DNA of 64,000 bases from Cloeon dipterum (Eukaryota; Arthropoda; Insecta; Ephemeroptera; Baetidae), in the NCBI RefSeq assembly GCF_949628265.1, contig NC_088787.1, forward strand, positions 23,364,501-23,428,500, written 5' to 3'. How positions within the stretch are numbered: position 1 is the first letter of the stretch; every line of letters starts with the position of its first letter. The notes beneath the pieces are model-generated. The model was not told where the DNA came from. It did no database searches and saw only the letters and a list, made by a program, of their open reading frames with translations. Of the stretch, positions 13,712 to 15,729 are shown piece after piece. Position numbers and translations under genes: made by a program.

Positions 13712-15729
13712 ATGGCAGATCAAGTAAGTTTTCGGTGTTATTACGCTTTGATATGCGATATTGTGTGTTTTACAACTGACATTTCTTGTGATTATTTGTT
13801 TCCCTAATCGTCTGGTCCAAAAATTTGTGATTAGCATTCACGATCAGCACGAAATATGGAGGTCATTACCGACCACGTTTTCGCCTGCTATAGCCATGGC
13901 GTCGTAGCAATGAGCTCTAACTATACTAAAAACTCTATTTATGAGTACCTCAAGATATTATAGCAATTTTCCTGGTTGAAACACAGCTTGTTCATTTTCC
14001 TGACACGAAATCCACTCGGTATTAATGCTTTTGATCAACTTTGGTATGTGGATGGATGGGTTATTTACACTCATCACTACATCACCGGTTACAATCATAA
14101 CTTGAAATGAATTTGAGCAGTAATAATTATTAAGTATCCTACCTAGATACCTCGCCTCTTTAGCCTGCATGCTGATAATATCATGCATAAAACAAGTTTT
14201 ATTTTGGCTTAACCTATATAATTGTATTATGGAAGGATATTCTGAACGGGGTTGGCTTTGCAGAATGAGCGCGCATTCCAAAAACAGCCGACCATCTTCC
14301 TGAGCAGGAAGAAAGCCCTTGCGACGAAAAAAAGGGCGGCTCTACGTTACACGCGCAACGTTGGCCTCGGCTTCAAGACCCCACGAGAGGTTAGTCTGTC
14401 AGAACCGATCTCATGCCTTTTTTTCTCCTTTTGCAGACTGAGAGAGCTTTCCAGAAACAGCAAACTGTTTGCCTGAACAGGAAGGCAAATTTAAAGAAGA
14501 AAACCCGGCACTACAGGAACATTGGGCTGGGTTTTAAAACTCCCCGAGAGGTTTGTTTGTTTCTCTCTGCTCCGGTGGTGGCGGCAAGCTGGTGTTGGTG
14601 CTTCTACGGTGCTTACGTCTCAATACCAACCATGTCTATTATTATTAAGTCTCTACTAACCTTTTAATTATGGAAAAATTACATTTTTTGCCACCCACTT
14701 AAAGTTTTTGCCACCCAAAATTTTATATGGGATTCTCATAAGAAATGGCGAGATGTGTAACCTGGTGGACACTGCAATTTTTCCATATTTAGTGCATTCT
14801 GGTTTACACATACTTGGATGGTTGCTACTCTCTTTACTATTACTTCTTCATTCATTATTATGTTTCATGTTTCATGTTCAGGGGTCCCTTCAAATAAAAT
14901 TAATAGAGGATTTAATTCCATAATATGCAGTTATTGAATTGAAAATAAGTACTCTTGAGGAACGCATTTAGAAACTTAATTATTTAAATCCTCTTTTTGC
15001 TGCAAATATGCTACAGCAATACTGCAAAATGCTGTAAACATTTAAGGCACTTGAGAAGGCATCTCTGGCTTTGGGTTAATTTTCTGTTGCTTGTGATTGT
15101 TGATTCAATTTTTGCATTGAAAAGTCAATTATGCATATTTATTTTTTGTGGTTGCATCTGTTATCAGGAAAAGACACCGTCTCTGTTCAGTCAGTCGCAA
15201 GGGGGACGTTTTGCACACGTTTCATGATGATAAAAAATATTGTACAAATTGAATCAATCTCTTGTTATTGGTATTGGGCGTAATATGTTTAAAAGTCAAT
15301 AATATCTTGAATATGTTTCTAATCAGAACATTTTTCTTCTCTCAGGCCATTGAGGGTACCTACATCGATAAGAAGTGCCCATTCACCGGCAATGTCTCCA
15401 TTCGCGGACGCATCCTGACTGGGGTAGTCCAAAAGATGAAGATGCAGAGAACAATTGTCATCAGGCGCGACTATTTGCATTACATTCGCAAATACAATCG
15501 CTTTGAGAAGAGACATAGAAATATGTCCGTTCATCTCTCTCCCTGCTTCAGGTAAGGAAGCGACTATCCAAAATCGGTACATTTTACTGACCACTCTTTC
15601 TGCAGGGACGTGTCCAACGGTGACGTTGTCACCATCGGGGAGTGCAGACCTCTCTCCAAGACAGTGAGGTTCAATGTCCTCAAGGTGACCAAGGGAGCTG
15701 GCTCAAAGAAGAGCTTCAAGAAGTTCTGA
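13712..15729 (+). CDS. RpS11: ribosomal protein S11 (uS17), isoform with exon 2a
   Basis: Exons are 13712-13723, 14264-14389, 15346-15551 and 15606-15729 (468 nt, 155 residues). The protein begins [16 protein letters not shown] and contains [67 protein letters not shown] and [17 protein letters not shown], ending KKSFKKF. This is a full-length eukaryotic uS17, which binds 18S rRNA in the 40S body. All junctions are GT-AG with matching phases. A second version of exon 2 lies just downstream and is listed separately. RpS11 is divergent from POSH and convergent with RNF10. AATAAA is at 15744-15749, 15 nt after the stop. Confidence 0.97.
14264..14389 (+). CDS. RpS11: RpS11 alternative exon 2a (42 codons)
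   Basis: Bounded by ttggctttgcag and the donor GTTAGT, phase 0 at both ends. It encodes [20 protein letters not shown]... ending [12 protein letters not shown]. The QKQPTIF core matches the common animal uS17 sequence. It has a four-residue Lys/Arg/Ala-rich expansion relative to exon 2b. Confidence 0.92.
14437..14550 (+). CDS. RpS11: RpS11 alternative exon 2b (38 codons), duplicate of 2a
   Basis: Bounded by ctccttttgcag and the donor GTTTGT, phase 0 at both ends. It encodes [20 protein letters not shown]... ending [12 protein letters not shown], clearly homologous to exon 2a (identical ERAFQKQ and GLGFKTPRE blocks, about 60 percent identity overall). Its frame is intact and both splice sites are good, so it looks functional, not decayed. 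Joined to exons 1, 3 and 4 it gives a 151-residue uS17. Only 47 nt separate it from exon 2a. Confidence 0.88.

What the first reader, a model, noticed from the sequence alone, without database searches (positions are those of the whole stretch)
14264..14550. Tandemly duplicated, apparently mutually exclusive exon 2 in ribosomal protein RpS11 (uS17)
Two adjacent exons encode alternative versions of uS17 residues about 5-46. Both are phase 0/0, both have intact frames and good splice sites, and both end in the same GLGFKTPRE block. The gap between donor 2a and acceptor 2b is only 47 nt (14390-14436). That is near or below the practical minimum for intron removal, so joining 2a to 2b would be sterically disfavoured and each mRNA would carry one version. 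The versions differ in length (42 versus 38 codons), charge pattern and core (QKQPTIF versus QKQQTVC), so they could yield two kinds of 40S subunit. Ribosomal protein genes rarely show mutually exclusive coding exons.
Basis: partly seen in the sequence, partly recalled or inferred. Interest (0 to 1): 0.75.

Follow-up and report, generated by a model that had tools for sequence, protein, structure and literature searches.

The report
Alternative exons in a ribosomal protein
The gene for ribosomal protein uS17 (RpS11) of this animal, probably an arthropod, carries two side-by-side versions of its second exon that can hardly be joined to each other, so it can probably build two kinds of small ribosomal subunit; fruit flies appear to have a similar arrangement, so it is a little-noticed known kind rather than a new one.

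Summary
Exon 1 (MADQ) can be joined to exon 2a (14264-14389) or 2b (14437-14550); either gives a complete uS17 of 155 or 151 aa. The copies share 26 of 38 alignable residues although 8 of 10 four-fold sites differ, so the duplication is old and both are under purifying selection. The 47-nt gap is below the shortest of 70 inferred introns (49 nt), and none of its possible branch-point adenosines is more than 24 nt from donor 2a, against at least 36 nt in 40 of 40 short introns. Corrections: acceptor 2a is weak, and double inclusion stays in frame, so splicing geometry, not NMD, must keep the exons apart. Not new in kind: PMC3303723 lists CG8857 (RpS11) in its EST-derived Drosophila set of mutually exclusive exons (exon pair not specified), and the fly uS17 chain in the PDB has a 2a-like version while a second fly version is recalled, not retrieved. 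Expression, species and relatives were not testable. A hypothesis worth testing: the reported RpS11 enrichment in fly-head ribosomes is an isoform switch.

The parts
13712..13723 (+). RpS11 exon 1, coding part (MADQ), donor CAA|GTAAGT
   Evidence: donor scores above 36 of 70 reference donors
14264..14389 (+). exon 2a, 42 codons, [42 protein letters not shown]; weak acceptor, strong donor
14390..14436 (+). 47-nt gap between donor 2a and acceptor 2b; adenosines only at gap positions 4, 12, 14, 15, 19, 24 and 46 (the last in the terminal AG), with a long pyrimidine tract before the AG
14437..14550 (+). exon 2b, 38 codons, [38 protein letters not shown]; strong acceptor, average donor
15346..15551 (+). 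exon 3, common to both forms
15606..15729 (+). exon 4 with stop codon, common to both forms; the preceding intron is 54 nt

Best explanation
A tandem duplication of exon 2 of RpS11 gives two mutually exclusive exons. Each mRNA joins exon 1 to 2a or to 2b and then to exon 3. 2a cannot readily be joined to 2b because every adenosine that could act as branch point for acceptor 2b lies at most 24 nt from donor 2a, too close for U1 and U2 snRNPs to assemble on one intron. The choice is then a competition: acceptor 2b has a strong pyrimidine tract and acceptor 2a a poor one, so 2b would be the default and 2a would need a helper such as an SR protein. Both proteins are full uS17 that differ in the basic N-terminal extension and would enter 40S subunits, giving two kinds of ribosome. 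Shown: gene structure, open frames, constraint on both copies, gap geometry, splice-site strengths. Inferred: actual exclusivity, direction of regulation, incorporation into ribosomes, any functional difference.
For: Exact structure and two intact products. Single locus. Copies differ at 22 of 38 third positions, against 10 of 38 first and 8 of 38 second positions (pooled 18 of 76 against 22 of 38, Fisher p = 0.0007), and at 8 of 10 four-fold sites. Simulated neutral decay of one copy gives an open frame with at least 26 of 38 residues in 1.9% of runs at distance 0.3, 1 of 20,000 at 0.5 and none of 20,000 at 0.75 or 1.0. Gap: its last adenosine at least 8 nt from the acceptor is at 24; 0 of 40 short introns has it that near the donor, minimum 36. 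None of 70 inferred introns, nor of the 20 low-scoring ones dropped, is 47 nt or shorter. The human survey PMC5740500 counts donor to branch-point distances under 50 as potential steric interference, 57 clusters, 9% (passages). Precedent in Drosophila: CG8857 in an EST-based set of mutually exclusive exons.
Against: No RNA or peptide data. Introns in this genome are often 49-60 nt, so 47 nt is not far below range, and a motif predictor places the branch point at 18-28 nt from the donor in 5 of 40 short introns, so a short distance may not be absolutely prohibitive. Double inclusion would stay in frame (193 aa), so nothing would remove such an mRNA. No fold or duplex beyond shuffles was found that could select an exon (six comparisons, z from -1.30 to 0.29). 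The difference in GC at third positions, which might have shown a preferred exon, is not significant (28 of 42 against 21 of 38, p = 0.36). The intron reference comes from two gene families only.
Confidence: 0.8

Rival explanations
1. One exon is essentially unused or decaying and all ribosomes carry the other version.
For: Acceptor 2a is among the weakest of the reference set (1 of 70 lower); 2b is the shortest of the eight exon 2 stretches aligned, in the variable middle.
Against: Both copies keep an open frame, splice dinucleotides, the ERAFQKQ and GLGFKTPRE blocks and a high PF16205 score while silent sites have largely diverged. A copy unused for that long should have decayed.
Confidence: 0.1
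2. Both exons are joined in some or all mRNAs, giving a 193-aa uS17 with a doubled N-terminal extension.
For: 2a plus 2b is in frame and 47 nt is only 2 nt below the shortest inferred intron.
Against: No adenosine that could serve as branch point more than 24 nt from donor 2a, against at least 36 nt in 40 of 40 short introns. A doubled extension on an rRNA-binding core protein is unlikely to be tolerated (general knowledge, not tested).
Confidence: 0.04
3. The second exon serves gene regulation rather than protein diversity: uS17 or a splicing factor shifts splicing between a productive and a poorly translated or unstable form.
For: Ribosomal protein genes often autoregulate through splicing (general knowledge).
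Against: Neither form carries a frameshift or premature stop, and both are conserved as protein, not as a poison exon.
Confidence: 0.06

Closest known systems
RpS11 (CG8857) of Drosophila melanogaster
   Same: Same gene. CG8857 is in the EST-derived set of mutually exclusive exons of PMC3303723 (parts 1-3 of 5 of the text read). The PDB chain 4v6w_AL (Drosophila by recall) has MADQ followed by a 42-residue 2a-like stretch. A second D. melanogaster version, recalled from UniProt and not retrieved, is identical to that chain from EAIDGTY to the C terminus and differs before it. A quartet comparison pairs 2a with the PDB version and 2b with the recalled one in 1691 of 2000 bootstraps.
   Different: PMC3303723 gives exon start 278 and length 183 nt for CG8857 and no partner exon, so identity of the exon pair is not proven. 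The exon 2 part of the recalled sequence is not verified by any search; the quartet rests on 45 columns and on that sequence.
Mutually exclusive exon pairs kept apart by a short intervening intron (steric interference class)
   Same: Homologous neighbours of equal phase, and a donor to branch-point distance that must be shorter than in the sampled introns.
   Different: A ribosomal protein as host gene. In the main text of the human survey PMC5740500 the words ribosomal and RPS11 do not occur (term search).
Ribosome heterogeneity by RP paralogue switching in Drosophila gonads (PMC8887423, passages)
   Same: Alternative versions of one ribosomal protein from one genome.
   Different: There from separate genes, here from one gene by splicing; tissue specificity here unknown.

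Membership tests
Mutually exclusive exon pair | Neighbouring homologous exons of the same phase | tested here: met
Mutually exclusive exon pair | Both exons under constraint as coding sequence | tested here: met
Mutually exclusive exon pair | Each transcript contains exactly one of the two | not testable with these tools
Steric-interference class | Branch point too near the upstream donor for the exons to be joined | tested here: met
   at most 24 nt by position of adenosines, against at least 36 nt in 40 of 40 short introns; branch point itself not mapped; searches show the margin is modest by length and that 5 of 40 predicted distances are 18-28 nt
RNA-structure (docking/selector) class | Competing base pairing that selects one exon | tested here: inconclusive
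   three folds and three duplexes, none beyond shuffles; seven inverted pairs of 12-19 nt, not tested one by one; a single genome gives little power
uS17 / RpS11 | N-terminal extension PF16205 and S17 domain PF00366 | tested here: met
   both isoforms
Orthologue of the Drosophila RpS11 exon pair | Descent of 2a and 2b from the same duplication as the fly versions | tested here: inconclusive
   1691 of 2000 bootstraps, one of four sequences recalled

The most novel reading that the evidence does not exclude
The exon pair predates the split of this species from Drosophila and is an ancient, splice-controlled source of ribosome heterogeneity in arthropods, with cell-type-specific 40S subunits. 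The RpS11 enrichment that Hopes et al. report in fly-head 80S, measured with unique peptides, would then be an isoform switch rather than a change of RpS11 stoichiometry.
Probability: 0.3. Interest if true: 0.8.

Novelty: new member of a known kind. Interest (0 to 1): 0.5.

Why it matters
Whether ribosomes are specialised is an open question, usually argued from RP paralogues or stoichiometry. Here one gene in one locus offers two constrained versions of a core 40S protein that can be told apart by junction reads or by single tryptic peptides (for example QPTIFLSR and NVGLGFK against QQTVCLNR and NIGLGFK), and each exon could be deleted separately in Drosophila if the fly pair is confirmed. 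It also offers a testable reinterpretation of one published proteomics result.

Tried and rejected
Related species: one scan of viral contigs gave no relative; genome contigs gave seven loci, all in records titled as prokaryotic MAGs, unusable for exon comparison. No relatives of this eukaryotic genome are held, so conservation in near relatives was not tested. The species was not identified; 'arthropod' is my inference. Retrocopies as evidence of germline mRNAs: none found. Rfam at gathering thresholds over the whole window: no match. RNA structure: nothing beyond shuffles. GC at third positions as a sign of which exon dominates: not significant.

Intron reference: the first script mis-oriented minus-strand genes and was replaced, which gave 90 inferred introns; 20 with score 0 or less were dropped before counting 70. 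They come from two gene families only (chaperonin PF00118; myosin head PF00063) and include both members of one near-identical paralogue pair. I gave 53 of the 54 chaperonin matches and 65 of the 101 myosin matches, chiefly those of genes with fetched DNA, by my choice; neighbours more than 25 profile positions apart were skipped. The reference PWMs were built from these 70 introns, which had been chosen with a generic consensus, so they are not an independent standard. The constraint simulation puts all divergence on one copy with equal base rates; its threshold of 26 of 38 comes from the pairwise alignment, while the multiple alignment gives 24 of 38, a threshold that was not simulated.

Literature: ten searches. 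Nothing that I saw in their listings describes the RpS11 exon pair as such; several listings were cut (for example 25 of 436 papers), most listed papers were not opened, and the library holds open-licence papers only. By term search or passages only: PMC7567386, PMC3228551 (no term found), PMC3923563, PMC2246290, PMC4053861, PMC2257972, PMC5740500. PMC1929063 (passage) names an RpS11-PC product for a honeybee gene, and PMC3629120 (passage) names a 'ribosomal protein s11 isoform 1' in Spodoptera; both hint at several annotated forms, no more.

Full report
What is there. The window lies in a 190-Mb genome of 10 contigs. The species was not identified; an arthropod is my inference from the protein and gene features, not a result. 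RpS11 is on the + strand with coding exons 13712-13723 (MADQ), 14264-14389 (2a), 14437-14550 (2b), 15346-15551 and 15606-15729. Joining exon 1, either version of exon 2, and exons 3 and 4 gives proteins of 155 and 151 aa, both complete uS17 by Pfam (PF16205 at 115.6 and 111 bits, PF00366 at 97.4 and 97.8 bits). Using both exons gives 193 aa and using neither gives 113 aa, all in frame. So reading frame does not enforce exclusivity.

Not chance, not a pseudo-exon. In the whole genome the 2a protein matches only exons 2a, 2b, 3 and 4 of this gene, 2b at E = 2.9e-6 (the tool scores only its best candidates). 2a and 2b share 26 of 38 residues in a pairwise alignment (24 of 38 in the multiple alignment). 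Among the identical residues, 8 of 10 four-fold sites and 5 of 13 two-fold sites differ. Differences fall on 10, 8 and 22 of 38 first, second and third positions; pooled first and second (18 of 76) against third, p = 0.0007. Simulated neutral decay of one copy almost never keeps this much at distances near the silent-site divergence: 1 of 20,000 at 0.5 and none of 20,000 at 0.75 and at 1.0, although 1.9% at 0.3. The duplication is therefore old, and both copies have been selected as protein.

Exclusivity. From chaperonin and myosin matches I inferred 90 introns and kept 70. The shortest is 49 nt and 40 are at most 75 nt, so introns of 50-60 nt are normal here and the 47-nt gap is only just outside the range. 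A better argument is the placement of adenosines. Besides the A of the terminal AG, the gap has adenosines only at positions 4, 12, 14, 15, 19 and 24. In 40 of 40 short introns the last adenosine at least 8 nt from the acceptor is 36 nt or more from the donor; in the gap it is 24. The intron between RpS11 exons 3 and 4 (54 nt) has it at 42. A motif-based predictor gives 24 nt for the gap and 33-50 nt for 35 of 40 introns, but 18-28 nt for the other 5, so the barrier may be strong rather than absolute.

Regulation. Against sites of the 70 introns, donor 2a ranks above 60, donor 2b above 32, acceptor 2b above 51, and acceptor 2a above only 1. In the region between exons 1 and 3, 16 of 68 AGs, acceptors 2a and 2b themselves included, score at least as well as acceptor 2a. 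This suggests that 2b is chosen by default and that 2a needs activation, perhaps through a regulator bound to the G-rich stretch before 2a or within the exon. That is inference. No fold or duplex beyond shuffles was found (six comparisons).

What is known. PMC3303723 (parts 1-3 of 5 read) built a set of mutually exclusive exons from Drosophila EST splicing graphs (76 genes, 269 cassette exons) and lists CG8857 in its Table 2 with a conserved AAGAAG in an exon of 183 nt. CG8857 is RpS11 (PMC2246290, passage). The length matches neither exon here, the partner is not given, and the text does not discuss the gene. The PDB chain 4v6w_AL (Drosophila, species recalled) reads MADQ plus a 42-residue 2a-like stretch. 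A D. melanogaster RpS11 that I recalled from UniProt has another stretch there and is identical from EAIDGTY to the C terminus; its exon 2 part is not verified by any search. Together these point to two exon 2 versions in flies. In a quartet test of the four stretches, 1691 of 2000 bootstraps pair 2a with the PDB version and 2b with the recalled one, 174 favour the opposite pairing and 135 separate duplications. This suggests, without proving, a single ancient duplication. By sequence alone the fly chain is not the closest solved relative of either isoform. Nothing seen in ten literature searches describes the pair as such; their limits are told under Tried and rejected.

A testable consequence. 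Hopes et al. (PMC8887423, passages) report RpS11 as one of the few canonical ribosomal proteins that differ between tissues, enriched in head 80S. They state that they used only unique peptides and searched a UniProt set of 41,157 sequences. If RpS11 isoform entries were in that set, unique peptides could come mainly from exon 2, and the enrichment would be an isoform switch. I could not read the supplements, so this is a hypothesis.

Verdict. A real, constrained, very probably mutually exclusive exon pair in a ribosomal protein gene; a new member of a known kind, with an apparent counterpart in Drosophila. Function and expression remain to be shown.

Noticed in passing
12406-12849 (-): A RING-finger exon (PF13923), resembling POSH/SH3RF (name recalled), lies upstream of RpS11 on the other strand, with about 0.9 kb between the two start codons.
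   Followed up: partly
36547-52851 (+): Exons of a TMEM132-family gene: PF23487 at 2.5e-33 and PF15706 at 5.4e-26; three further TMEM132 domains below their curated cut-offs.
   Followed up: partly
G000 C1:23761540-23765164 (-), outside the window: Seven tandem matches to the same segment of the myosin head (about profile positions 377-440), one with a stop inside, which look like a large set of mutually exclusive exons in a muscle myosin gene.
   Followed up: no
G000 C2:23692202-23694651 and C4:8508731-8511204, outside the window: Two chaperonin genes on different contigs with nearly the same intron lengths and splice sites, apparently a recent duplication.
   Followed up: no
L010:5001-5327 and L016:5001-5392: uS17 genes in contigs titled as bacterial MAGs (Crocinitomicaceae, Verrucomicrobiaceae), 71% and 56% identical to RpS11 exons 3-4 over the best segment; possibly eukaryotic contamination. 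The L016 match is longer than its residues need, so it may hold an intron.
   Followed up: no
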